This document shows positions 371 to 33,632 of a stretch of 64,000 nt of DNA, piece after piece (within the stretch, counting starts at the first letter, position 1; every line of letters starts with the position of its first letter). The translations under genes and the position numbers were made by a program. The notes under the pieces were generated by a model that was given only the letters and a program-made list of their open reading frames with translations, was not told the origin of the DNA and searched no databases. This stretch comes from Choanephora cucurbitarum (lineage: Eukaryota; Mucoromycota; Mucoromycetes; Mucorales; Choanephoraceae): contig JAIWNI010000008.1 of assembly GCA_025331435.1 (NCBI GenBank), positions 248,001 through 312,000 of the forward strand. Reading direction: 5' to 3'.

Positions 371-736
371 TATAGCTACCCAATTATTCTACGTATATCT
401 TTTCTCTCCCCCTTTCCTTTCTTCTCTGTAACTTTCCACACCTCTTTTACTGTTTAGATATTTTTACAAGCACGCTTTCTTATCCTCCTCTCTCTAATAC
501 ATATATATATATATATATGTATACATCTATCATATACGTGTATATATATACATATATATCTCAATCAACCATCTTATGCTCTCTACCATCTCTTCAATCT
601 TTTGTTTTTTCCTTCCTCCCTTTTCTTGAACTAGATTGTCATATATTCTTTTTGAAAACCATATCTACATATCTTATTTCTATCTATAGTCTTCTCCCTT
701 ACATACAACATATTCTAGAACATACAAACAAAGCTT
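371..736. other. Convergent 3' UTR region with TA-rich tract
   Basis: This is the gap between two converging genes, the PUF gene (+) and SPT7 (-). It is pyrimidine-rich on the plus strand. A run of TA/CATA repeats lies at about 499-560 and includes long TATATA tracts. No coding signal is supported; the open frames here are low-complexity. Confidence 0.6.
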
Positions 737-3718
737 TTAATACAATTCTTTTTCTCGAGTACGTTTCTTTTGTTCTCTAAACGTTTTTTGCTTTTGTCTC
801 TCTCTCTTCCTTTTCTTTTTTGTCTCTTCAAATCCTTCTTTAGCATCGCGTTTTCGGTTAGGTTCAAGAGCCGAGCGATGATGTACAGGTGGATATCGAG
901 GGCGTCGTTTTCGGTTACTGTATTCATCTTCTATTCGATCAGGCTGCTCTTGATACCATGGCTGTAATAAACCAATCCATTGTGATTCATGTGTCACAGG
1001 TGTAAATTTAGGAGGTGGATGATACTTGAGTTCTATGATGGATTCAGTTCTCTCTCTCTCTCTTTTTTTTTTCCTTTATGTTTTTTTTTTTTTACCTTTA
1101 GAAGGAGGTGTGAATTGTTTGATTTTGGCTGTATCATGACCAAACCAGAGTTTTGGGGGTATTTGTGATGATAGATGGCTTAATCCTATCTCCTGAAAAC
1201 CAAAATAATCTTCTATAAAATCTTTTCCAAATAAACCACTATAAAAAGATATAAGTCATAATGGCCTTATAAGAACAGTAAGTCTTACATGGTAAAGGCA
1301 TCTTCTTGATCCGCTTGCTCAAACAGAGTAGATTCTGAGCCTTCTGGTGACTAATAGAATAAGAAGAAGAGAAAATATGTTATCTATTCTAGATAGATAT
1401 TCCTGTCTTTCTTTTTTTCCTTATAGACAACTTACATCCATCAGGTCTCGATAGGTGTGTTCTAACTTCTCTTTCAGCTGGCCCAACTGCTTTCCATAAT
1501 GCTCAATACCATCGATATAATGATCCAGATCATCTAATTGTTCAACACCATGATCATGTAAGACATGCAACAAGACTTCTTCTCCCGACATTTTCTGATG
1601 ATAATCATCCCAATATTGTCGCAGTGATTTAGACATAGAAGATAGTCGTTCTGCCATCAATTCAGTCAGAATTTGCATTGGTTTTGTCTGTGCTCCTTCA
1701 AATCCAGCATGAGAGAGCAAATGAACAATGGCGTGTTGTAATAGGCCATCAGCTGCTTCTTGAGTCAATTCAACTTGAGATGTTCCCTTTGGTTGCGATC
1801 GAGTCAAACAAGTTGCTTGTTCATCTAAAGGCATATCCAGCTTTATTTGATTGTGAGCTTGAATTCTGTAAACTAGAAATAGAACTTACAGGTATATCAT
1901 AAAGTACAGACTTGCATTTGTTGTGGATCATGCGAATGTCGGATAAGCGCTCTATATTTTGATGTAGTAAGGTATTGAGACCGTCGGAAGGACATTGGGT
2001 AAGCGATAATGTACTAAAAGAAGGTCTTTATACCAAAAAAAAGGTCAGTTTCTTTTCTTTTCTTTTTTTTACCAATAAACTTTTTAATAAATGACTTACA
2101 TTGGTTCTTCTTCATCCTCTGAGTCGTTAAGTAGGAGGTCTACAGGCAGACCATCGATATCAGGTAAACCAGGCACCATATTATACTCAGGTAAGAACAA
2201 ATCGTCACGCTCTTGATCAGGTAAATTGGTTCGGTCATGAAGTCGCTTTGAAAAGAATCCGTCCTGTTCATCTTCAGAATCTAGATCAGAAAGCAGTGCC
2301 TCTGCATACTCTTCAGGTCCGCGCATGCCTTCATTCCTCTCCATCCATTTGACAAAGCCAAGACGGCTGGCACGTATCAATCGCTTGACATGATCAGGCT
2401 GATGATGCATCAGCTCCATAACAGCATGTCGCTCTATATCAAAAGGTGAAGTCTGAATGGCATTACGCTCTCCAAACGCGAGTTGATATTGTCGTTCTGT
2501 TTCCCATGTTAGTCTAGCTCTTGTCTTGTGTGTTGTCTCAACCCAGACAGATTCTCGGCTATCTAATGCACTAGCCTCAATTGTTTCCATCGGCGACTTC
2601 TTTGCCTCTCCTTCTTCCTCTTGTTCTTCTTTACGTGTAGGTTGACTGTGAGCAGAGATCTCTGTCAGAGGAGAGTCATACGTCCCTTGTTGTTTATCAG
2701 ACGTTATGTGATCCTCTGACTCTGACTCTGACTCTGATTCTACCTCTTCTTCTTCTTCTTCTTTTTGTTTTCTTGGTTTCTTTAGTTCAATATCAGGCAC
2801 ACGTACTAAAAGACGATCGGTTTTACGTCGCATGGCTACCGCATGCTTTCGGTATTCGCTGGAGGGGTTTGTGTTGTATTCAAGACAATTGTCGTAGATC
2901 AAGTAGAGATCGCGTGCAAATTCTTTCTTGCTTCTATATTCGGCCTGTTTCAGCTTTCGAGCCATGGTACCGAGATCCATAGGTTCCTTGATGACATCAA
3001 GGTAATCAGGTGCTTCTCTTTTGCTGACTTTGGTGAGAAATGGAAATGAGTGTTCGGTATAGTTTCTAAGGTCATTCAGCACTCTTTCGCATGCCTCATA
3101 AAGTTCTTCTTGCGGATCTTTCTCGTTTTCTTGGAACTTTGATTTACTGGACTTGACATCCAAAAGCAGTTGACAGAGATCGTGATCATTTAGGCTGGTT
3201 TTATCTCTGTTGTCCACAATACCTTTCACGAGATATTTCAGGTCAACGGTATCAAGCTCTTTCAACAGACCTAGCTAGATTTCTGTTTAGGTCAATAAAC
3301 AAAGAAAAAGAAAGGAAAAGCAAAAACTTACTTTTCTTTCCAAGGAAGTGCTGGATGGCTTTTTTTGTTTTGTTGCCTTTGCCTCTGCTGCTGCCTTTTC
3401 TTCCTGTTCCTTTTTTGACTGTGCCTCTAACAGAAGCATAGCATGTTGATCAAATTCAAGCGTGTGATAGGTATCAAACAAAGGTACAGCTGTATAGGAA
3501 GAGTTGAGGTTTGGTATAAGTTGTTCCATTAATGCGACACGTACAAGATAGACTGTGTGTTGATCTGAACAATTCATAAACTCTTGCCATGCTTCAAAGG
3601 AACCGAGTGCCTGAGTAAGATGATTTTGTTGGTCTTCTGTCAAGTCTAATGTGTTGGTTTTTAAGCATTGTTTCGCTAAGTCATAGAGCTTCTGGGGTGT
3701 CATAATATTGTGTTGCAA
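737..3718 (-). CDS. SPT7: SAGA complex subunit Spt7 (bromodomain plus histone-fold)
   Basis: Spt7 is a structural subunit of the SAGA histone-acetyltransferase coactivator in the nucleus. Seven exons can be read: 3718-3332, 3274-2100, 2013-1890, about 1786-1436, 1350-1289, 1238-1096 and 1032-737, giving about 845 residues in one frame. Exon 2 encodes a bromodomain with core FPFLTKVSKREAPDYLDVIK and the acetyl-lysine pocket region YDNCLEYNT, followed by acidic Glu/Ser repeats. Exon 4 encodes a bromodomain-associated histone fold beginning ELTQEAADGLLQHAIVHLL, the segment that pairs with Taf10 in yeast. Exon 6 has the conserved Spt7 tail (DFIEDYFGFQEIGL). The C-terminus is Lys/Arg-rich. The acceptor of exon 4 (CCAAAG, 1787) is inferred only from phase and is the weakest junction. 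The orthology call is strong. Confidence 0.88.
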
Positions 3719-4833
3719 TTAGGGTTTGTTGATACATAAAGACAAAAGAAAGCTGTTCCTCTTACTTCTTTCTTATGTACAAACAAATGTTCAAGACAAT
3801 AGGTACGCACTGACTTTTGTTATTTTTTTAAGAGAGAAGAAGAGAAAAAGCAACCAAGAATACTATAGTTCAGATCCTGATACAGTTGTTTATTCTCGAC
3901 TGTTTTTTCTGGGATTTCTCAAATAAGCTCAATTACTTCTTTTTAGGATAATGCAAAGAAGAAAAGAGAAAGAGCAAAAGAAAAAAAAAACTTTCTTTAA
4001 CTTTTTTTTTGAAAGTCCACAATAGACTTTTTTGTACTCTTTTTTCAGATTTCGTTAGTCTCCTTTTTAGACAATATGTACCTATTGCTAACACTCTACA
4101 ATTGCTTCTTCTAAAATAAGCAGATCCTTCAACACAAACCAAAATCATATAATATGCACCATGTTTTCTCCTTGAAGCTTTCGGATCAAAGTATTGTTGT
4201 CATCATTATTGATCAAATGTCTGTGATTACATTTGGAACCTATCTATAACGTTAAGCATCTGTCGATAGCAACAATGAGCGTACAGCTCCCTTCTTTTTT
4301 TCATACCTAGTTCAAGCATACTTAGCTTTTTTTTGACAATTATGCTCTTTATGTCATTGCCAGAGCTTGTTGAGAAAAGCCGTCTTTTTTTTTTGATGAA
4401 GAAAAGGTGGCGCCCCCTTTTGCTTATATTCATCAATTCAAGAGCAATATAATTGAAGGTCGTTATGGTAAATTTCGATACCATTCATAACTGAATAAAG
4501 AGTAAACCATTCAAGGCTTGTGGAATCAACTGAGCACATACATTTGAAAAAGAAACTAAACTATCATGCATAGAGTCATATCTACTGAAGTATTTTAGAC
4601 ATTCACCTTCGTAAATAAGGGAAGTTTTTGTCCAATCATGTTCTTACTACCACTTATGAATGAGTATTTTTGGATTCAAAATTGCGTTATTTTCTCGAAA
4701 TCAGATTGTTCCTAGACTTTGAATGGTTCGTATTTGGCCAATCATGATTAGGCGATGTTTCAAAAGAGATAAGACAAGCGATGAATAATCATCATCCTTT
4801 CTTTCTCTTTCTCTTCTTTATTTCATTTCTATC
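3719..4833. other. Intergenic region between divergent SPT7 and bZIP genes
   Basis: About 1.1 kb separate the start of SPT7 (-) from the start of the bZIP gene (+), so both promoters should lie here. It is AT-rich with several poly-T and poly-A runs. Small open frames on the minus strand (3933-4148, 4227-4484) have no recognisable protein features and I do not call them. Two CCAATCATG motifs are annotated separately. Confidence 0.6.
4632..4746 (+). promoter_or_regulatory. Pair of CCAAT boxes upstream of the bZIP gene
   Basis: The 9-mer CCAATCATG occurs twice, at 4632-4640 and 4738-4746, about 200 and 95 bases before the bZIP start codon. CCAAT is the binding core of the Hap2/3/5 (NF-Y) complex. 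The exact repetition including flanking bases suggests a real element, but function is inferred. Confidence 0.4.
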
Positions 4834-5349
4834 ATGTCTTATATCTCCTCTCTTAACTTACTTGGTGACGACTCCCCAGTACCTCTTTCGGAAGAATCTC
4901 TAAATGAAGAGCTCACACTCTGGGCCAACGCACAATTCACTTTTGACACAGAGCCTGGCACAGCAACAAATGACAACTTCAAAACACAACTACTCCATAC
5001 TCTTAATGAGCTTGTTAATCCACCAAATGAAAACAGGTCAACCATGACTGATTATCTAGATCTCACACATACATCATCTCCTGTTGCACCCGCAATAAAC
5101 GAAAAGAAACGCAAAGAAATAGATGAATCTACAGAGGCAATTGAAGATAAAAGAAGACGCAATACAGCTGCTTCTGCTCGATTTCGCATGAAAAAGAAGC
5201 TAAGGGAACAAGCACTTGAACGTACAGCGAAAGAAATGACAGAGAAGGCAGAAGCACTTGAAAAAAGAGTACTTGAACTGGAGAAGGAAGCTAAATGGCT
5301 TCGTGCTTTAGTCGTTGAAAAAGATCCTGCATTGCTTGAAAAATCTTAA
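4834..5349 (+). CDS. bZIP transcription factor, Cys-3/Met28-like
   Basis: A single-exon gene of 171 residues. The basic region RRRNTAASARFRMKKKLREQ (about residues 107-126) carries the N-x2-A-A-x2-x-R pattern of bZIP proteins. It is followed by a leucine zipper with heptads through about residue 160 (LEKRVLELEKEAKWLRALV). The variant NTAASARFR with following KKK is typical of the fungal Cys-3/Met28/Atf4-like branch, which controls sulphur or amino-acid metabolism genes. The N-terminal 90 residues are acidic and Ser/Thr-rich, as expected of an activation region. The ATG follows a pyrimidine-rich leader. The target pathway is inferred from the basic region only. Confidence 0.85.
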   Translation: MSYISSLNLLGDDSPVPLSEESLNEELTLWANAQFTFDTEPGTATNDNFKTQLLHTLNELVNPPNENRSTMTDYLDLTHTSSPVAPAINEKKRKEIDESTEAIEDKRRRNTAASARFRMKKKLREQALERTAKEMTEKAEALEKRVLELEKEAKWLRALVVEKDPALLEKS

Positions 5350-7049
5350 TTTATAAATCAACTTGCCCAATTTTTTTTTTTACGCTTTTGATCTTTATTG
5401 GCTTGATCGATGTGTTTAAAGAGAAAGGGTTGAAAGGACTTTTTTTTTAAAAAAAAAGAATTTATCTTGCGTTAGTGATATGTTCTAAAAACTGAAGAGT
5501 TTCTGTGATGAGAGGACAATGCCTTCTCAAGTAGATCAATGTCATAGCATCAATTATCGGATGAAAAGAATGACAAAGTATCTCAAAATTGTACTTTTGA
5601 CACTTTTAAAGATTGCAGTTACAGCAGTCGCTCTATTTAAGAGTGTTCCTGTTCTTAAGAAATACACTCTTACATTGAGCATACTCTCACCTCATACGCT
5701 CTTAAATCGAGCGATTTTTGTATCTAGCTTAATTACAGTCATCCCCCGATTTAGGGAACGGTTTTGGTTCCCTCGACACCGTTCCCTAAATCAAAGTTGT
5801 TCCCTATTTCTCAAAGCAATAGCAGGGAATATTCAACATTAAACGAACGTCGGTTCCCTTAAAGACTGTTTCCTAAATCAAAATCGTTCCCTATATTTCG
5901 TTCCCTAAAACGGGAAATGACTGTACTCTAATCTTCAGCATCAAATCTCCAGCTTGATTCGATAGCTCTTTTTCAGTAGATGCTTTGCCTGTTTTCATTT
6001 TAGTGATTGGCTTTATTTTTTCAGACATTTGAAATAGGGGACATAAAACGCAGTTTATTAGGTTCACTTGGTTGCTCATTCTGTAAATCAAGAAAAAGAA
6101 GAATTTGCAACGCTTTCTTTAGACTTAGAGCACAGGAATCTTATAGGCTCTATCTATTACACCTTGAGCTATCAAATTGTCAATCTAACAATGAAAGCGT
6201 TGGACGACTGGTCCAATGTCGTATAGAAAGTACTTTTTTTCGATATCCTGTCATGTTCTTGGACCGGCAGGAAGAGGTACATACAAAAATAGAGAGCACC
6301 AAAAGAGACCAATAAAATAATAGAAGGTAAGAAGAGCAAAAAAAATGATAAGGGAGCTGTGACATTGTAATCGATAGAGCATATGATAAATCTTCAAAGC
6401 AACCAGAATTGTGATTGTTTTTAATTGTTGCTGTACTATCTCATTAATGTTATTTTTCTTGAGGCCACTATGTAACAAAATATCCTATTTCTCAGCAGTT
6501 TGATAGTGTTCAAGGTTTGCATGAATTAGATAGCTGATAGGACTTTTGCTTAGAAGTGGTCATTCAAAAGAATCTTTGTTTAGTATCTTTCTCCTCATGT
6601 TGCCATTGGGATTATTTTTGAAGTTGAAATATATACACTCTCGACGCATCAATTGGATTTCAAAACCCTATGTGTTTCTTAGTAATTTACATATTAGGAA
6701 CAAACATGTTGCACTTTTCTTTTCTTTTTTGTATCGTTGTCTCTTCTTATCCATATTATCAAAGCAAACTGTTCATTTCACTTGATTGAAGTTCTTTTTT
6801 TGTCTTCTTTTATCAAAGCAATAATGCATAGAAAAACTTAAACTGACAGCCTTACATAGGCTTGCTGAAATAAGCCTGCAGCACAATCATTTTACAAAGT
6901 GCAGCTGAGGTACTAATTCCATTAATGGGTATTTGTTAAATCAAAAAGGATTTACGCGTCAATTGTTGCATTTAAAGAAAAAAAAAATTTTTTTTCTTCT
7001 TTCTTTCTAATCTTGCATAGTCTTCTTGTTAATAGAGTCATCTAGACTG
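5350..7049. other. Intergenic region containing a MITE
   Basis: A 1.7-kb AT-rich stretch between the bZIP and TMEM209-like genes. The only structured element I see is the MITE at 5736-5923. The short open frames here (for example 6007-6315 and 6546-6785) look like chance frames, with no domain, signal peptide or splice-supported extension. Confidence 0.55.
5736..5923. mobile_element. Tc1/mariner-superfamily MITE with 25-bp TIRs and TA target duplication
   Basis: A 188-bp non-coding element. The left end CAGTCATCCCCCGATTTAGG and the reverse complement of the right end, CAGTCATTTCCCGTTTTAGG, match over about 25 bp with four mismatches and continue with GAACG on both sides. TA dinucleotides flank it at 5734-5735 and 5924-5925, the target-site duplication of Tc1/mariner/pogo elements. 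The interior repeats variants of GTTCCCTAAATC on both strands. It has no coding capacity, so it would move only with a transposase supplied in trans. Its TIR shares just CAGTCA with the Tc1 element at 24.8 kb, so that transposase is probably not its partner. Confidence 0.75.
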
Positions 7050-24793: not shown

Positions 24794-24837
24794 TATAAAT
24801 TAATTTTTCTCAAATTTCAGTAATATATGTTTTGATA

Positions 24838-26170
24838 CAGTCACCCAAAGAAAGTTTTGTGGGATTTCAAAATCCGAAAACTATTGATGAAGGTTCCTCC
24901 TTCGAACATTACTATACAAACTCTTTTTATTTCTAATAAACTGCAAATAAAAACAATTAGAATGTCTCGCTTGACTCCTGAAACAAGAATTAAGATTGTT
25001 GAACGCAAAAATTTAGGCCATTCCTACGCCCAAATAGCTCGCGATCTCCAACTTTCACCTGAAACTGTAAGACGAACTTGCCACAACTTCGAATCTCGAG
25101 GTACCGTTCACTCTTTGAAAGCCTCTGGACGTCCAAAAGCGATCAACGATAGAGTTAAGGTTATCTTGAAGAGAGCTGTGAAGCAAGACCGGACTAGAAC
25201 ACTTATGCAACTCCAACAGGAGTTACCTACCAAAGTTTCCACCCTCACCATCTCCAAGGCACTTCATGAGATGAACCTCAGAAGTAGGGTAGCCACAAAA
25301 AAACCTTTTATAAGTGATGTGAACAGAGCAAAGAGGCTCAACTTTGCAAAACAGCATAAGGATTGGACAGTTGACCAGTGGAAGCAGGTCATTTTCTCTG
25401 ATGAGTCTTCATTTGAGGTTGGTAAAGATCCGAAGAAGGTAAAAGTATGGAGAGAACCCGGGGAGAGATACAAACCAGAATGCGTGCAACCATCGTTTAG
25501 TAGTGGTAGGACTACCTACATGGTATGGGGTGCTATTTGTGGTGATAGGAAGTCGCGTTTGGTGATTTTCCCCATACATAAGGTGAAATCTGCAGAGATG
25601 ATCCAGTATGTCTATCAACCGGTGTTGCTGGACTTTTATCGAAGTGTTCCCGGCGCTGTTTTGATGGAAGACAATGCACGACCACACACATCAAAAGAGT
25701 CCAGTAGTTGGAAAATATCCAATGGTATTGAGAAGTTATGCTGGCCTCCTCAATCACCAGATCTCAATCCTATTGAGAATATATGGATGAGAATGAAAGG
25801 ATTCTTCCATGAAGAATGGATCAACTTTCGTGGAAGAAAAAACCATGAAGATATGCTCCACGATGCTTGGAACAAAGTATCTATAGATGAAATCAATCGG
25901 CTCATTGAAAGCATGCCCAGGCGCATGCAAGAAGTGATTAATGCTAAAGGGGGCCCTACAAAATATTAGTGCTCTAATAAAAACATTTTAATATATTGAA
26001 TACATTTCTTTTGTTTCCAAAGCAAAACTGAAGTTTACATTCAAGGATATTTATTCTTAAATTGTGAGTTGCTTAATGACTAAACGAAAGTTTTAAGGCT
26101 AACATAGTCATGATCGTTGAGAAGACCATGTCGGGTTTTGAAATCCCACAAAACTTTCTTTGGGTGACTG
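24838..26170 (+). mobile_element. Tc1-type DNA transposon, apparently complete
   Basis: A 1,333-bp element bounded by TA at 24836-24837 and 26171-26172. The left end CAGTCACCCAAAGAAAGTTT and the reverse complement of the right end are the same, and the match continues through TTGTGGGATTTCAAAA with one mismatch soon after, so the TIRs are at least 36 bp. It contains one uninterrupted transposase gene. The near-identity of the ends and the intact frame suggest recent insertion. It lies inside an older minus-strand coding fragment. Confidence 0.9.
24962..25969 (+). CDS. Tc1-family transposase (DD34E)
   Basis: A 335-residue intronless transposase starting MSRLTPETRIKIVERKN. The N-terminal half holds two helix-turn-helix motifs (SYAQIARDLQLSPETVRR and TLTISKALHEMNLRSRVA) that bind the TIRs. 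The catalytic triad is complete: Asp in VIFSDESSFEV, Asp in LMEDNARPHTS and Glu in SPDLNPIENIW, with 34 residues between the second Asp and the Glu, as in Tc1 elements. The frame is open upstream of this ATG into the TIR, but that part is non-conserved leader. No stop or frameshift is seen, so the enzyme may be functional and could act on the deleted copy at 47.8 kb. Confidence 0.92.
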   Translation: MSRLTPETRIKIVERKNLGHSYAQIARDLQLSPETVRRTCHNFESRGTVHSLKASGRPKAINDRVKVILKRAVKQDRTRTLMQLQQELPTKVSTLTISKALHEMNLRSRVATKKPFISDVNRAKRLNFAKQHKDWTVDQWKQVIFSDESSFEVGKDPKKVKVWREPGERYKPECVQPSFSSGRTTYMVWGAICGDRKSRLVIFPIHKVKSAEMIQYVYQPVLLDFYRSVPGAVLMEDNARPHTSKESSSWKISNGIEKLCWPPQSPDLNPIENIWMRMKGFFHEEWINFRGRKNHEDMLHDAWNKVSIDEINRLIESMPRRMQEVINAKGGPTKY

Positions 26171-27457: not shown

Positions 27458-28453
27458 TTAAATTGGCGTTTTATTCAAGCATTCATCAAACTTTTCAACA
27501 GAATATTTGCAAAATCCTAGAAGATCTCCAATAAGAATCTGATTGCAAGCCATTTGAATCCTGGTTGTCAGGGTCTCTTCTTCCAAAAGCTGTTCTCTCT
27601 TGAGTTTGCTTTTGCAAACAGACCAAAATTGCTCAATTGGATTCAGTTCTGGTGAATAAGGCGGGAGGTATACACACCGATATCCACGGTTTTCTATATA
27701 CTTGCGGATGTCCTCGTGTTGGTGGATAGGCGCATTATCCATTACAATATAATTGTCGTTGAACATTTCGTGCCTGTCTAATACATCCATTGTGCTCGAT
27801 AGGAAGTTAAAGTAGTGGCCCGTGGCAGTTCCACGTTTACTGGTAGTCTTGTCGACGGCTCTGCTGCCTGTCGTCTTGCGCTTTTTGGATGGAGTCATTG
27901 CCTTTGGACGTCGCACCGATACGCTCACAACACCAAATGGGGAGATTGCACCGAGAATGGTTGTTGTTATCGCTCTGGTTTTTGGTACCTTGACAATTGC
28001 ACGAGAGCCTTTTTTAGACCAAGCATACGAACGCTTCCTGTTGATGTGGAACGCTGCTTCATCTACGAACACACAATTGCTCAGATAGTCCATGTCGGTT
28101 TGCAGCCACTTTGTCACCCAAGCATGTCGATCTTCGATTTTTTCCGGACTGTTTCGTTCGACTGATTGAAAATGAGCTCGCTTCAGGCTAATCTTGCATT
28201 TTTTGGTCATGAAATCGTGTAATGCACTTTTCTTGATGTCGAGGTTTGCAAACTGATCCGTTGAGCTTGCCATGATCTCGTCCAGCACAAGTGATGGCTT
28301 TTCATCGATCAAATCAACCAGGAATTTTTGGTGTTCTTCGACTAGCTTTGGTGGCCGTCCTGGTGGTCTACCGCCACCCACATTTCTCACGATCTGATCT
28401 GTTGGTTCTTTTTGATCTTTCTGAACCCAATACTGCGCTGTTCGTGGTTTGAC
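27458..28453 (-). pseudogene. IS630-like (DD34E) transposase gene, split by the MULE
   Basis: A minus-strand frame of about 330 codons runs from the MULE edge to 27458. It includes a Gly/Pro-rich linker (GGGRPPGRPPKL) and a DDE domain with Asp in VFVDEAAFHI, Asp in IVMDNAPIHQ and Glu in SPELNPIEQFW, 34 residues apart. The frame has no stop and extends upstream to KPRTAQYWVQ, part of a helix-turn-helix, with no start codon before the MULE inverted repeat. The missing upstream exon is found beyond the MULE at 32889-32940 (minus strand ANDFLRARKN). Joining the two sides with a single GTC gives a continuous frame. The gene is disrupted but otherwise looks intact. Confidence 0.8.
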
Positions 28454-28595
28454 GGGTTGGCTATATTCACCTCACAAGAATTTCCTTTTTGGGAGTTTAC
28501 ACCTCACTTTTTATTTTCGCCCAATCATTTATCTTTATTTTGTAAATTTTGGTACACCCCATATTTTCCTCCCCTCACTTTTTCTACACACCTCA
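28454..28595 (+). repeat. MULE left terminal inverted repeat (142 bp)
   Basis: Matches the reverse complement of 32747-32888 at every position I compared. It contains four CCTCAC motifs (28470, 28502, 28573 and, crossing the inner end, 28591), several followed by T runs; these are candidate transposase-binding repeats. The GC-poor interior may hold the promoter for the element's gene. Confidence 0.85.
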
Positions 28596-28730
28596 CTTTT
28601 TTTCATTATAAAACATCGTATTTCCATTTTAGTTAAAAAGCATAATTTGGTATGTTTCTGTTAAATATCTATAGTCAAAATTGTTATTTTCTGACCTACT
28701 GTCAAATTAAACTAAAGAATAATACACAAC

Positions 28731-30890
28731 ATGAGTTTTGCTACCTTCACTCCTGCTATAGGGCTAAAGTTCGACACTCTCGAAAAATTCGTTAGTGTAT
28801 GTCAAGACTATGCCAAGTCTAAGGGATTTGTCGTTTCTGTTGCAAATTCCATGACAAGCACAGCAACAAAGAGGCGCCGTTACTGTGAACTTAGATGTGT
28901 TCGTTCTGGTAAATACAAGACAACAAGCGATTTCCCAGCTAAAAGACAGAAGATGAGCATTAAATGCGACTGCAAGTACCGTATTCGAGTCAAAGAAACC
29001 GAAAACGATTGGGTTATCACTCATTTTGATGACTGTCATAATCATGGAGCTCTTGAAATTAATGAAATCCAGACCTTCTCAAGAGCTAGACAGTTAGACA
29101 AAAAGCAAATGCAAACTTTTCTTGACCTAGCATTTACTGATGCAAGCAGTGCTTCAATTTCCAGGATGGTATCTGATCCAGAGAACAACAAGATTGTCTT
29201 GAAAAAAGATATACAAAACTTGAGAGCTCAAGTAAAAAACTCTCTTGACGATGGTGAAAGTGGTGAATCCCTGAGACCTTTCTTAGCTCTCTTGGAAGAA
29301 AAGGATTACATAGTGTCCAAAAAAAAACCAACACCAAAGGAGAGCTGACACATTTGTTTTTTGCTCCTACTGCAGCTGTCGAAATGGTAACATTATGCTG
29401 CATGAAATTAACAGATTTGCAAAACTAATTTTTCTTAAAACTTTGTTATTATCTCTTCAGGTTGAAAGATGCTCAGAGGTTCTTATTGTTGACGCAACCT
29501 ACAAGAGTAATATGTATAAGTTCCCTCTGCTGAACGCTATAGGTATCAACAATACCTATGGAGATCATTACAATAAGAACACAGTAAACAATCGATCTCT
29601 AATGAATTTCCAGATTGGACTTGCTTGGTCTATTGATGAGACAACAGAGAGCTATTCTTGGTTTTTTGAACAGTTAAAAAACAAGGTGAAGATTATACTG
29701 AACTTTTTGAAACTTCCTCATTTACCTAAGACTATTGGCTTTCTAGATCTATTTGGAAAAGAATTGTGTCCCTGATGTTATCATGACAGATCGGGACAAA
29801 GCTGTCCGTGCCGCCGCCGCTGAAGTATTTCCTTCAAGCAAAAAGATGCTCTGTGCTTGGCATATCATTGATAAAAACTTGAAGGATAAATGCAAGAAAT
29901 CCTTCAATAACACAAGAAACTTTGAAGATTTTGTTGATCTTGTATGGGGATTGCAAAGCTGCAAGAACGAAGAGATGATTAGCGTACATGTAGCAGCAAT
30001 TCAAAAGCATTGTGTATTGCATTCTCACGAAGCCTCGAAGATCATGCAATACACAGAAAGTCTTATGAAAGAAAAAGAATGTTGGATAGCCTGTTTTGTA
30101 GACAGCTTTCCACATTTAAATACCTACACCACAGGCCGTGTAGAATCTCAGCATGCTGCTCTGAAAAAGGGGCTGTTCACTGCTGTCTCTTTTGAAAAGG
30201 CATTCAATGTCATGCATGATGCATTGTTGGGCCAAAGGGCACATCAGCAAAGAATGACTGCCAACAGCAAAATGCAGCTTCTCCCATTCATGACCAGAGA
30301 TAAACATTTTGATGAGGTTAAGTACAAGGTAAATATAGACTAGCCGAGCTACAACGATTTTAGATCCACGTCTTTACTAGATGCTAAACAGAGTAAAATA
30401 GATTACTTCAGCTGCAATTAACCTCTTGAAGACGCAAATTGTGCTTTATCATGAAGAAAAAGCAAATGGTAGGCAAAAGGTGTGCAGTGGAAGATTCAGA
30501 AGTATCTACAAGCTTCCTTGCCGACACGAATTTGATGTTGAAAGTCCCAACATGCCTATCAGCTTGCAGTTAGTTGATAGGCGTTGGTTCGTTTCTAGCG
30601 ATGTAGACAAGGAGGTGGAAGACATGTGTCCAGCCGTGACAGAAAGCCAACTAACTGACTCGGCAGGTATTAGCACTCAAGATGTGAATTCCTTAGTGAC
30701 CAGCGCCCTCTACAAATTGGAGCATGTTTTGAACACTTGTGATGACAAAAGCCGCAAGATGTATATTGTCAAGCAGATTGAAGAATGGTACAATGAGTCT
30801 GAGAAATCAAACTCTCAACCCATTCTCAAACCTAGTTCCCAATTAAAGAGCATAGGCACGTTTTCATTACTTATGTTAAGCTTGCATTGA
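28731..30890 (+). pseudogene. MULE transposase with FAR1-type DNA-binding and SWIM-like regions (frameshifted)
   Basis: Exon 1 (28731-29386) has a FAR1/WRKY-GCM1-like zinc region with paired cysteines (CELRCVRSG, CDCKYRIRV) and HNHG. It continues to LTHLFFAPTAAVEM only after a +1 shift at the A9 run 29319-29327. Exon 2 (29461-29685) has EVLIVDATYKSNMYKFPLLN and the QIGLAWSIDETTESYSWFF block. Exon 3 (29747-30328) has PDVIMTDRDKAVRAA and LCAWHIIDKN, the Asp and CxxH of MULE transposases. Exon 4 (from 30402) has VCSGRFRSIYKLPCRHEF, a SWIM-like C-x-n-CxH motif. Introns are GT-AG and short. If the A run held ten bases, exons 1-3 would be one frame. The C-terminal boundary near 30860 is uncertain. 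Confidence 0.75.
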
Positions 30891-31100
30891 CATAACTCTA
30901 GATGATAAAGTATTCGAGAAGACCACAAAGAGGGATCCTCTCAAATTTGAAAGAGATCAAATGAAACAGAAGCAAGTAGTAAAGAAGAACGTTGAAACCG
31001 CAAGAAAAATACACCAGGCAATCAAAGGTATTGTAAAGCTTCATGTAGATATTACTAATAGTAGATCTAACAATATTGCAATGCAGCTGGAATTACAAGT

Positions 31101-32051
31101 GCAGATGGGTCTCCATTGCCTTCACCAATTCGCCAATCGATTCCATTCAACATGATTGAAAATGTCGTTGGATGGAAATATGTAGTGCCAAATGGAAACT
31201 GTGGCTTTCGTGCTGTTGCTGCAGCTGTTGGACTTGGAGAAGAAGAATGGCAAAGTGTGAGAAAAACTCTGTTAACAACATTGAATTCAAACAGAGCGTT
31301 ATATTTGAAGTATGTTTGCTATCAATCTGTTGAATGGTTTGACTCGTTAAGTGTGAGCTTAGAATCTAATGATAGCCCTTGTGGCATTCAGCACTATATG
31401 CAAATGCCCTCAACAGGTAAACTTACATTGAACTTTATGATTTAAGCATATACATGACTATTTATTAGGCTATTTGACAAGCAATGCCTATCAAAGGTCA
31501 GTTGTTTTTTTTCAAAGGCAACAAGCGTAACATTCTTCCCTGATTGTATGCAAAACAGTAACTCTCCTGTAGTATTAGCTTTGCATCAGCCTGATAACGG
31601 GAGTTCATCTCTCAATCACTATTACCAGCTCGTACTTCAACCTGGAAGCCCTTGGCCTGAAACAATTTTCAACAACCACCAGTATTGTTCTGAAGCCAAC
31701 TTTGCTTCATGGCAATCACTTTACGAGCCGCAATTACCAAATAAAACTAATAAGTGTACCGAGTATGTTGGAATTGATACCCGTCTCGGTACCACTAACT
31801 CAACACAACCACTACAACCAACACAACCAACACAAAAAATTGCCATGTATGCAGGAATTGATACCCGTCATGGCAAGAAGCAACCAACATTCAAAATTCC
31901 AAAAAGAAAAGAATTTGAAAAAGTTACCTTACCTCCATGCAAGTACGATTCCGTAATCGAAGACTACACTGACATCAATCCTCAATGTGATTTCTGTGGA
32001 TCGGATTTCGAAGGTGAAGCTCTTCAATTGTTGATGCAACTTGAATATTAA
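31101..32051 (+). pseudogene. OTU-type cysteine protease region carried in the MULE (frameshifted)
   Basis: The first segment (31101 to about 31415) contains VVPNGNCGFRAVAAAVGLGE, the OTU catalytic-cysteine motif. The usual D-G-N-C reads N-G-N-C here. After an intron ending TTATTAG (about 31468) the frame reads YLTSNAYQRSVVFF and then must gain one base at the T8 run 31505-31512 to continue SKATSVTFFPDC. The second segment (31548-32051) has VVLALHQP and LNHYYQLVLQPG, consistent with the C-terminal OTU histidine. It then has a duplicated YxGIDTRxG motif and ends QCDFCGSDFEGEALQ. OTU enzymes remove ubiquitin-like modifiers. OTU regions fused to transposases have been seen in other elements, so this is part of the element rather than a host gene. 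Confidence 0.65.
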
Positions 32052-32692
32052 AAATACTTAAAAGAAAAAGAAAGACCATTCAAATATTTGAAATCCAAGC
32101 AAAAACACCTATCAAATGCAGCTTTGGCCTACTGTAAGGTTCATGCAATGCATGACCTTCAAAAAAAGTTAAAAGAAATGAACCACCCTGTCGATCTTTT
32201 GGAGAAAATTAGCCTTGAAAACATAGATGACAGGATAACCAGATGTTTGAAGCTTATAGAACAAGATGATGAAAACGGTCTAGCCAACTTGATGTATAAT
32301 TCATACGAGAACTTTATGTCCAGAATCAAGGAGGAGGGATTCGTGCACACCTATCGGCACTTAGTTATTGCTTCTAAAAGAAGCACTTATTTGGTATTTT
32401 TAGTCTCATTGATAACTAATTGCAGAACTCTAAACTTTTTTTTTAGCCAGGATACTATGGAGATGATGGGGCAAGCCTGATCTATAGACAGGCATTAAGA
32501 AAGGCAAAATTGAAATCAGATCGAAATTTCAATGACACTCTTCGCTTTTCTCTTGTTCCTGCGGTAGGAGTTTTGTTAATTGCAGAGGACTTGTACGGCA
32601 CAAAGCCAAAATATGACGATAACGAAATTAGTTGTGCATATATGATTATGGACTTTACAACTAATAGCTTATATCACATAAAATTAGAATAA
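32052..32692 (+). pseudogene. RTC4-like domain segment at the MULE 3' end
   Basis: In the same frame as the OTU segment but after the TAA at 32049-32051. It reads ALAYCKVHAMHD (the F/YCxxH motif that pairs with the preceding CDFC), DLLEKISLENIDDRI, and FMSRIKEEGFVHTYRH. An intron (32394-32446) leads to PGYYGDDGASLIYRQAL, SLVPAVGVLLIAEDLYG and a C-terminus at 32692. The order CxxC, CxxH, PGYYGxxG, LVPxxxxxLIxED is that of the fungal RTC4-like domain, named after yeast restriction of telomere capping 4; its molecular role is poorly known. Either the stop is a nonsense mutation in a long OTU-RTC4 polyprotein or this is a separate decayed gene. Confidence 0.55.
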
Positions 32693-32746
32693 AGATTTAT
32701 ACAAAGTATTGAAAACACAAATCCGCATCAGCAACCCAAAGAAAAA

Positions 32747-32888
32747 TGAGGTGTGTAGAAAAAGTGAGGGGAGGAAAATATGGGGTGTACCAAAATTTAC
32801 AAAATAAAGATAAATGATTGGGCGAAAATAAAAAGTGAGGTGTAAACTCCCAAAAAGGAAATTCTTGTGAGGTGAATATAGCCAACCC
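32747..32888 (-). repeat. MULE right terminal inverted repeat (142 bp)
   Basis: Reverse-complement partner of 28454-28595, with no difference seen by eye. It is followed directly by GAC and the other half of the interrupted IS630-like transposase gene. Confidence 0.85.
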
Positions 32889-33632
32889 GACGTTTTTTCT
32901 GGCTCTTAAAAAGTCATTGGCAGTGAACTCTAAAATTTCAATGCAACAAAAGCCACTGATACATATTCTTTAATGAAGAGGATTGACATTTCAATTTGTT
33001 CTCATGAAAGGGAAAGAGGGTTGTTTCAATATTATTCTTTTTCTCAGAACATAGTAAATCAATAAGCACTGTGTTGAAGACATAACTAGTGCAGCTACTT
33101 GAAACTGTCTGCATGTATAAAGAATGTCAAGAGGACTGCTTGTTGCAGCATAACCCCTCTATGATCACACTAGATGATGATATACTTCAGGCTTATTCTC
33201 GACAAAACTAGAGATGTTGTTCAAGTGGAAGAGAGATGAAAATCCCGCTCATACATTTCTGGACGATATCATTAGTTGTATGACTAGCGAGGGAGACTGA
33301 GTTAGGCTATATATACTCTTGCGCCTCTACTTGGCTTTCATTGACACCACTTTAGATATGAAGGATTAGAAAATATTTTCTAAACAAAATGAATACAGCA
33401 CATTAAAAAAAAACTTTTATTGTTTACAACCAATCAATAAGCCTAATTTTGAATAAAAAAAATTTAAAAATCATACTACACTCCTAACTTCTGCAATTTT
33501 TCTTTCTTTCTCTTTTACATAAAGACCAAATTCTTTTTTGCTCTTCTTGCTCTTCTGCTCTCACTCTCTTCTTTAACTTCGATTAAACACATCTATAACC
33601 GCCTTATATTAACTGTTAATCCACGAAAAAAA
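32889..33632. other. Right edge of the transposon island and promoter of the GYF gene
   Basis: The first ~50 bases (minus strand) are the displaced exon end of the IS630-like transposase. The rest is AT-rich with poly-A at 33404 and 33457 and a pyrimidine-rich leader (CTTCTTGCTCTTCTGCTCTC) about 85 bases before the GYF start codon. No other gene is supported. Confidence 0.5.

What the first reader, a model, noticed from the sequence alone, without database searches (positions are those of the whole stretch)
28454..32888. MULE whose transposase is followed by OTU-type and RTC4-like regions inside one pair of long inverted repeats
Seen: 142-bp inverted repeats enclose, on one strand, FAR1/MULE/SWIM segments, an NGNCGFRA OTU motif and an RTC4-like CxxC/CxxH/PGYYG region. 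Known: MULEs can carry protease domains (OTU or ULP types). An RTC4-like region linked to an OTU region inside a MULE is something I do not recall. Inference: the element may carry a ubiquitin/chromatin countermeasure module, or has captured a host RTC4-like gene.
Basis: partly seen in the sequence, partly recalled or inferred. Interest (0 to 1): 0.82.

Follow-up and report, generated by a model that had tools for sequence, protein, structure and literature searches.

The report
Fungal MULE transposase with RTC4 tail
A jumping gene in the mould Choanephora cucurbitarum appears to encode its transposase as one long protein ending in a ubiquitin-protease-like part, which is usual for such elements in this genome, and in a relative of a fungal telomere-linked domain (RTC4), a combination we have not seen reported.

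Summary
Window 28453-32889 is a DNA transposon with 151-nt, 99% complementary ends. On the + strand lie FAR1, MULE transposase, a SWIM-like motif, an OTU-like region and an RTC4-like region. A 99.4% identical sister copy gives an eight-exon, GT-AG model of 1,180 residues with one frameshift; splicing is predicted, not observed.

All 7 of 7 family copies found with OTU sequence also carry RTC4 sequence. The OTU part is ordinary here: outside this family, 42 of 64 OTU-like loci follow a MULE domain on the same strand. RTC4 is the unusual part: genome searches found it in this family, a diverged relic and one host RTC4 gene. A domain-only host RTC4 profile scores it at 35.3 bits, shuffles at most 9.1. 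It keeps CxxC, CxxH and PGYYGxxG and shows modest signs of constraint. It is too diverged to be a recent copy of the host gene.

Every copy read is broken, and no convincing target-site duplication was found. How RTC4 would help transposition is unknown; a role at the excision break is my guess. Verdict: a real, stable new domain combination in a known kind of transposon.

The parts
28453..28603 (+). left terminal inverted repeat (CGGGTTGGCTATATTCACCTC...)
   Evidence: same outer end at unrelated flanks of other copies
32739..32889 (-). right terminal inverted repeat
28731..29386 (+). exon 1: start codon, FAR1 DNA-binding domain; frame shifted in this copy in an A-run relative to sister copies
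   Evidence: boundaries carried over by hand from the 99.4% identical copy C47, L012
29461..29685 (+). exon 2: first part of MULE transposase domain (VDATY)
29747..30328 (+). exon 3: second part of MULE domain (TDRDKA, LCAWHI) and RVESQHA
30402..30855 (+). exon 4: SWIM-like motif (by eye); 5' splice site reads GC in this copy, GT in C47
30902..31027 (+). exon 5: linker
31087..31416 (+). exon 6: OTU-like region, presumed catalytic Cys codon at 31200 (NGNCGFRA here and in C47, DGNCGFRA in C37 and C311)
31469..32393 (+). exon 7: rest of OTU (His codon 31617, NHYYQ), low-complexity linker, RTC4 CxxC (31986-31997) and CxxH; this copy has a T-run frameshift (shared with C47) and a stop codon of its own at 32049
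32447..32692 (+). exon 8: RTC4 core, PGYYGxxG, LVPxxGxxLIxxD
27461..28471 (-). Tc1/mariner-like DDE_3 transposase ORF abutting the left end; its frame runs into the TIR (neighbour, not part of the element)

Best explanation
It is a degenerate copy of a once-autonomous MULE-transposase DNA transposon of Choanephora cucurbitarum whose single spliced protein runs FAR1 - MULE - SWIM-like - OTU-like - RTC4-like. Shown: the anatomy, the constancy of the OTU-RTC4 tail among copies, RTC4 homology, and modest signs of constraint on the RTC4 segment. Predicted: the splicing into one protein. Inferred: FAR1 binds the TIRs, the MULE domain cuts, the OTU part removes ubiquitin from the transposase or nearby chromatin, and the RTC4 part is a zinc-stabilised helical module that tethers the complex to, or dampens signalling at, the chromosome break.
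For: TIRs. Phase-compatible GT-AG exons give one frame through FAR1, MULE and the first half of OTU in C47, then after one frameshift a second frame to the end. MULE and FAR1 profiles. OTU tail homologous to those of other MULEs in the genome (E 1.7e-5) and placed like them. RTC4: domain-only host profile 35.3 bits, shuffles at most 9.1; hits the host gene at E 4.4e-4 genome-wide; keeps 17 of 27 residues invariant in 27 host proteins (60 shuffles: mean 6.2, maximum 11). pN/pS in RTC4 0.32 (C47-C37) and 0.47 (C47-C34), while the linker gives 3.0 and 1.5 in the same pairs; binomial P for RTC4 0.04 and 0.02. A diverged relic at C319 keeps 50 residues of the RTC4 region beside a TIR-like end. Another Choanephora assembly has a predicted protein of the OTU-RTC4 part (P0003).
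Against: No RNA evidence for the splicing. Every copy read has breaks. Neither OTU nor RTC4 passes Pfam's cut-off. The whole-protein host RTC4 profile does not find the full-length element protein (-2.7 bits), and hhalign gave 13%. No convincing target-site duplication at 6 both-ended copies, unlike a second MULE family here. For OTU the constraint test is not significant (P 0.06 and 0.25); pairs with C31 give 0.6-1.1 in RTC4 on 74-75 poorly aligned codons; MULE between window and C47 gives 1.36 on 13 changes. P0003 as predicted lacks the His of CxxH and the PGYYG stretch; P0002 ends before PGYYG. Nothing tests the biochemical roles.
Confidence: 0.66

Rival explanations
1. Two genes, not one: the MULE transposase ends after the SWIM-like exon, and an OTU-RTC4 protein is a second gene of the element, as in MULEs with an accessory second ORF.
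For: Public gene models cover only the OTU-RTC4 part (P0002, 291 aa; P0003, 299 aa), each starting with a methionine inside exon 7.
Against: Exons 4, 5 and 6 join in phase with GT-AG introns. In other families the OTU-like match and the MULE match are reported with the same open-frame length (980, 993 and 1,006 aa at C279, C337 and C246), so they appear to be one frame. P0002 and P0003 look like automatic predictions on broken copies.
Confidence: 0.2
2. A passenger: the RTC4 piece was picked up by the MULE (as MULEs pick up host gene fragments) and has no role.
For: MULEs are known to acquire host gene fragments (PMC6446971, abstract passage); all copies read are broken.
Against: It is in the C-terminal frame, in 7 of 7 family copies with OTU sequence, in part in a diverged relic and in another assembly; pN/pS below 1 in the two usable pairs; CxxC/CxxH kept.
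Confidence: 0.18
3. The RTC4 likeness is chance or convergence in a helical, lysine-rich sequence.
For: Pfam score below the curated cut-off; hhalign against the host profile gave only 13% probability; whole-protein host profile -2.7 bits on the full-length protein; long branch.
Against: Domain-only host profile 35.3 bits on the segment and 28.8 on the full protein, against at most 9.1 in 3,000 shuffles; collinear CxxC, CxxH, PGYYGxxG and LVPxxGxxLIxxD. hhalign was fed a two-row alignment, one row lacking parts of the domain. (Odds lowered from 0.05 because.)
Confidence: 0.03

Closest known systems
MULE with C-terminal OTU-like region, a common MULE form in this genome (e.g. C13:167967-171788, 101-nt TIR)
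   Same: MULE domain, SWIM-like motif by eye, OTU-like region downstream on the same strand, long TIRs
   Different: at C13, the one other family whose DNA after OTU I read, the OTU frame ends about 170 nt before the element's end, which leaves no room for RTC4; A-run target-site duplication
Ginger1 transposons with C-terminal OTU or Ulp1 domains (PMC2836005, passages)
   Same: transposase with a ubiquitin/SUMO-protease-like tail
   Different: Gypsy-integrase-type transposase; no RTC4 mentioned in the passages seen
Plant MULEs with ULP1 domains (cited in PMC2836005; otherwise recalled)
   Same: MULE plus cysteine-protease tail
   Different: ULP1, not OTU; RTC4 not recalled there
MULE-Mucorales, group 5 of PMC6446971 (table passage)
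   Same: Mucoromycota MULE with SWIM
   Different: listed with 40-bp TIR and 10-bp TSD; OTU and RTC4 have 0 occurrences in that main text; phylogeny not compared here
Host Rtc4 (C347:414810; homologues P0004-P0040)
   Same: CxxC...CxxH...LPGYYGxxG...LVPExGxRLIxxD order
   Different: free-standing protein; only RTC4 precomputed in its 37 homologues; 19-26% aligned identity to the element in 8 rows

Membership tests
MULE (Mutator-like) transposons | MULE transposase domain | tested here: met
   PF10551 E 2.6e-17 over positions 1-98 of 99
MULE (Mutator-like) transposons | FAR1/WRKY-GCM1-type DNA-binding domain | tested here: met
   PF03101 E 5.6e-12
MULE (Mutator-like) transposons | SWIM zinc finger (frequent, not universal) | tested here: inconclusive
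   no Pfam SWIM match; degenerate motif by eye
MULE (Mutator-like) transposons | long terminal inverted repeats (frequent) | tested here: met
   151 nt, 99%
MULE (Mutator-like) transposons | 8-11 bp target-site duplication (typical) | tested here: not met
   5 of 6 both-ended copies show no direct repeat; the sixth (C24:425450) only an offset 7-mer with one mismatch. Two of the six share their immediate flanks and one lies in an inverted duplication. The C13 copy of a second family shows one. The element is therefore filed by its transposase, not as a canonical MULE insertion
OTU cysteine proteases | profile match PF02338 | tested here: not met
   no match up to E 1, 5 and 10. Not filed as a Pfam OTU member; described as OTU-like
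OTU cysteine proteases | catalytic DGNC and downstream His | tested here: met
   PDGNCGFRA in C37 and C311, NGNC in the window and C47; NHYYQ
OTU cysteine proteases | similarity to solved OTU domains across Cys to His | tested here: inconclusive
   OTUD5 3pfy E 0.0077, query 36-155; AlphaFold model unusable at pLDDT 35
RTC4 domain (PF14474) | profile match at the curated Pfam cut-off | tested here: not met
   19.1 bits against 23.7. Hence called RTC4-like
RTC4 domain (PF14474) | homology to RTC4 proteins of the same order | tested here: met
   domain-only profile of 27 Mucorales proteins: 35.3 bits, E 9.7e-9 for 24,736 sequences; 3,000 shuffles at most 9.1
RTC4 domain (PF14474) | CxxC, CxxH (presumed zinc ligands) and PGYYGxxG, in order | tested here: met
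RTC4 domain (PF14474) | Rtc4 function (telomere-linked genetics) | not testable with these tools
   PMC6162548 passage: function of Rtc4 unclear, genetically linked to telomere maintenance

The most novel reading that the evidence does not exclude
A transposase with a built-in RTC4 module: the transposon carries its own version of a telomere-linked fungal protein, so that the transposase, its OTU protease and the control of the broken chromosome end travel as one protein. This would be a first direct link between RTC4 and the handling of DNA ends.
Probability: 0.2. Interest if true: 0.75.

Novelty: new variant of a known kind. Interest (0 to 1): 0.5.

Why it matters
The function of RTC4 is unclear (PMC6162548, passage). 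A natural fusion to a transposase and a protease-like domain is a functional hint: it suggests a nuclear, DNA-end or chromatin role for RTC4 and gives a defined protein with which to test it. It also bears on the open question of why unrelated transposases repeatedly gain ubiquitin/SUMO-protease tails (discussed for Ginger in PMC2836005, passages).

Tried and rejected

Literature: searches are listings; none showed a paper linking RTC4 to a transposon. I opened passages only of PMC6446971, PMC9370660, PMC2836005, PMC11069148 and PMC6162548. 'RTC4-like' or PF14474 occurs in none of the papers held. The library lacks most subscription papers. Work on WRKY-GCM1/MULE domain architectures (Babu et al. 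2006, recalled) was not seen.
Full report
What is there. The window lies in a 33.4-Mb, 357-contig assembly. A public protein whose contig has the same length as the window's contig (545,302 bases) is named Choanephora cucurbitarum EDC96DRAFT_323904, so the genome is very likely that mould. At 28453-32889 two arms of 151 nt, 99% complementary, bound 4,135 nt.

Gene model. The window copy is broken: a frameshift in exon 1 against its sisters, a GC splice donor after exon 4, a T-run frameshift in exon 7 shared with copy C47, and a stop codon in exon 7 of its own. Copy C47 (L012), 99.4% identical, reads through eight predicted exons with GT-AG introns: FAR1, MULE, linker and the first half of OTU form one frame, then comes one frameshift, and the rest reads to a stop just inside the right TIR. 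With the frameshift read as X the protein is 1,180 residues. Splicing is predicted, not observed. C47 lacks its left TIR in the assembly (contig start).

Copies. A DNA search with the left end gave 20 matches in the genome, a lower bound. Coding copies are the window, C47, C37, C311 (split by a DIRS-like retroelement, named by eye), C31 (homology ends near the contig end), C34, and C113, which was found by protein. All 7 of these 7 have OTU sequence and also RTC4 sequence; C113 has only the second half of OTU, and C31 only the first 57 residues of the RTC4 query. Every one carries breaks. Short elements with the same ends but no coding match lie at C61 and C24 (two places); single ends lie at C13, C295 and C124; C325 has an end plus the start of the gene only. 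A relic at C319 has 50 residues of the RTC4 region (25 of 50 identical) with a TIR-like end beside it (75% over 73 nt). Another Choanephora record with a different locus prefix holds P0003, 76% identical over 70% of the 500-residue query; as predicted it lacks the His of CxxH and the PGYYG stretch.

The OTU part is ordinary here. A search with the OTU-like region of another MULE of this genome (C13) gave 79 matches at E up to 1, merged to 68 loci; 46 of 68 have a MULE-domain match 0-4 kb upstream on the same strand, and none has a MULE match within 4 kb in another arrangement; 22 have none nearby (both lists are lower bounds). Four of the 46 are focal copies, so 42 of 64 are others. The focal family's OTU is found at E 1.7e-5. 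By sequence the closest solved structures are OTUD5 (E 0.0077 and 0.12); the C13 region's own best matches are OTUs at E 0.17 and 0.69 (that 6dx5 is a viral OTU is recalled). Pfam does not recognise the focal OTU. Ginger1 transposons also end in OTU or Ulp1 domains, and the authors suggest a role in repair during or after transposition (PMC2836005, passages).

The RTC4 part is the unusual one. Pfam sees it below its cut-off (E 0.0016). A profile of the RTC4 region of 27 Mucorales proteins gives 35.3 bits (E 9.7e-9 for 24,736 sequences) for the segment and 28.8 bits for the whole element protein; the best of 3,000 shuffles has 9.1. A profile of the whole host proteins is weaker: 18.9 bits for the segment, shuffles at most 8.6, and -2.7 bits for the full-length element protein. 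It keeps 17 of 27 residues invariant in the host set, including CxxC, CxxH and PGYYGxxG; 60 shuffles gave a mean of 6.2 and a maximum of 11. Searching the genome with it returns this family, the C319 relic and, at E 4.4e-4, the host's own RTC4, the only Pfam RTC4 match in the genome. The Pfam search missed the element itself, so other diverged RTC4 copies could also be missed. All 37 homologues listed for the host gene have only RTC4 precomputed. Against: hhalign 13% and an unplaceable branch.

Selection. Between C47 and C37, pN/pS is 0.33 (MULE), 0.60 (OTU), 3.0 (linker) and 0.32 (RTC4); between C47 and C34 it is 0.56 (MULE, on 191 of 680 codons), 0.44, 1.5 and 0.47. The binomial P is 0.04 and 0.02 for RTC4, 0.25 and 0.06 for OTU, 0.0001 and 0.08 for MULE. 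These are small counts on broken copies. Pairs with C31 give 0.6-1.1 for RTC4 on 74-75 codons where its alignment is poor, and near-identical pairs have too few changes (window-C47 MULE: 11 against 2, ratio 1.36).

An anomaly. No direct repeat of 5 bp or more flanks the window, C311, C37, C61 or C24 (218847) copies, and only an offset 7-mer with one mismatch flanks C24:425450. C61 and C24:218847 share the same immediate flanks and probably count once. The C37 copy lies at the centre of an inverted duplication (598 nt each side, one mismatch), which may be an assembly artefact. A second MULE family at C13 has an A-run duplication, so the method can find one, though an A-run is an easy case.

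Mechanism. The likely picture is a transposase that carries its own protease and RTC4 modules. Rtc4's function is unclear; it is found in cytosol and nucleus and linked genetically to telomere maintenance (PMC6162548, passage). A rust fungus is reported with 45 RTC4 proteins (PMC9370660, passages); whether those belong to transposons was not tested. I therefore propose, as inference only, that RTC4 works at the excised chromosome end.

Verdict. A real and stable new domain combination in a known kind of transposon, with a weak mechanism and no intact copy seen.

Noticed in passing
window 27461-28471 (-) and 24836-25966 (+): Two Tc1/mariner-like transposase ORFs (DDE_3); the first abuts the element's left end and its frame runs into the TIR, so the MULE may have inserted in it. 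Its left-flank DNA was found only once in the genome.
   Followed up: partly
L010 (C37) flanks of 599-4946: The C37 copy sits at the centre of an inverted duplication, at least 598 nt per arm with one mismatch: assembly artefact or fold-back event.
   Followed up: partly
L009 about 1206-5455: A DIRS/Ngaro-like retroelement (reverse-transcriptase-like and recombinase-like ORFs, named by eye) splits the C311 copy inside RTC4.
   Followed up: no
both-ended copies of this TIR family: No convincing target-site duplication at six copies, unusual for a MULE.
   Followed up: partly
L056/L077 (C13:167967-171788): A second MULE family with 101-nt TIR, OTU-like tail and copies 97-100% identical over the stretches compared, the C13 one beside an A-run: may be recently active.
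   Followed up: partly
C201:204329, C223:307376, C314:166922: Three further PGYYG codon matches outside this family and the host RTC4, not examined; chance is expected at that rate.
   Followed up: no
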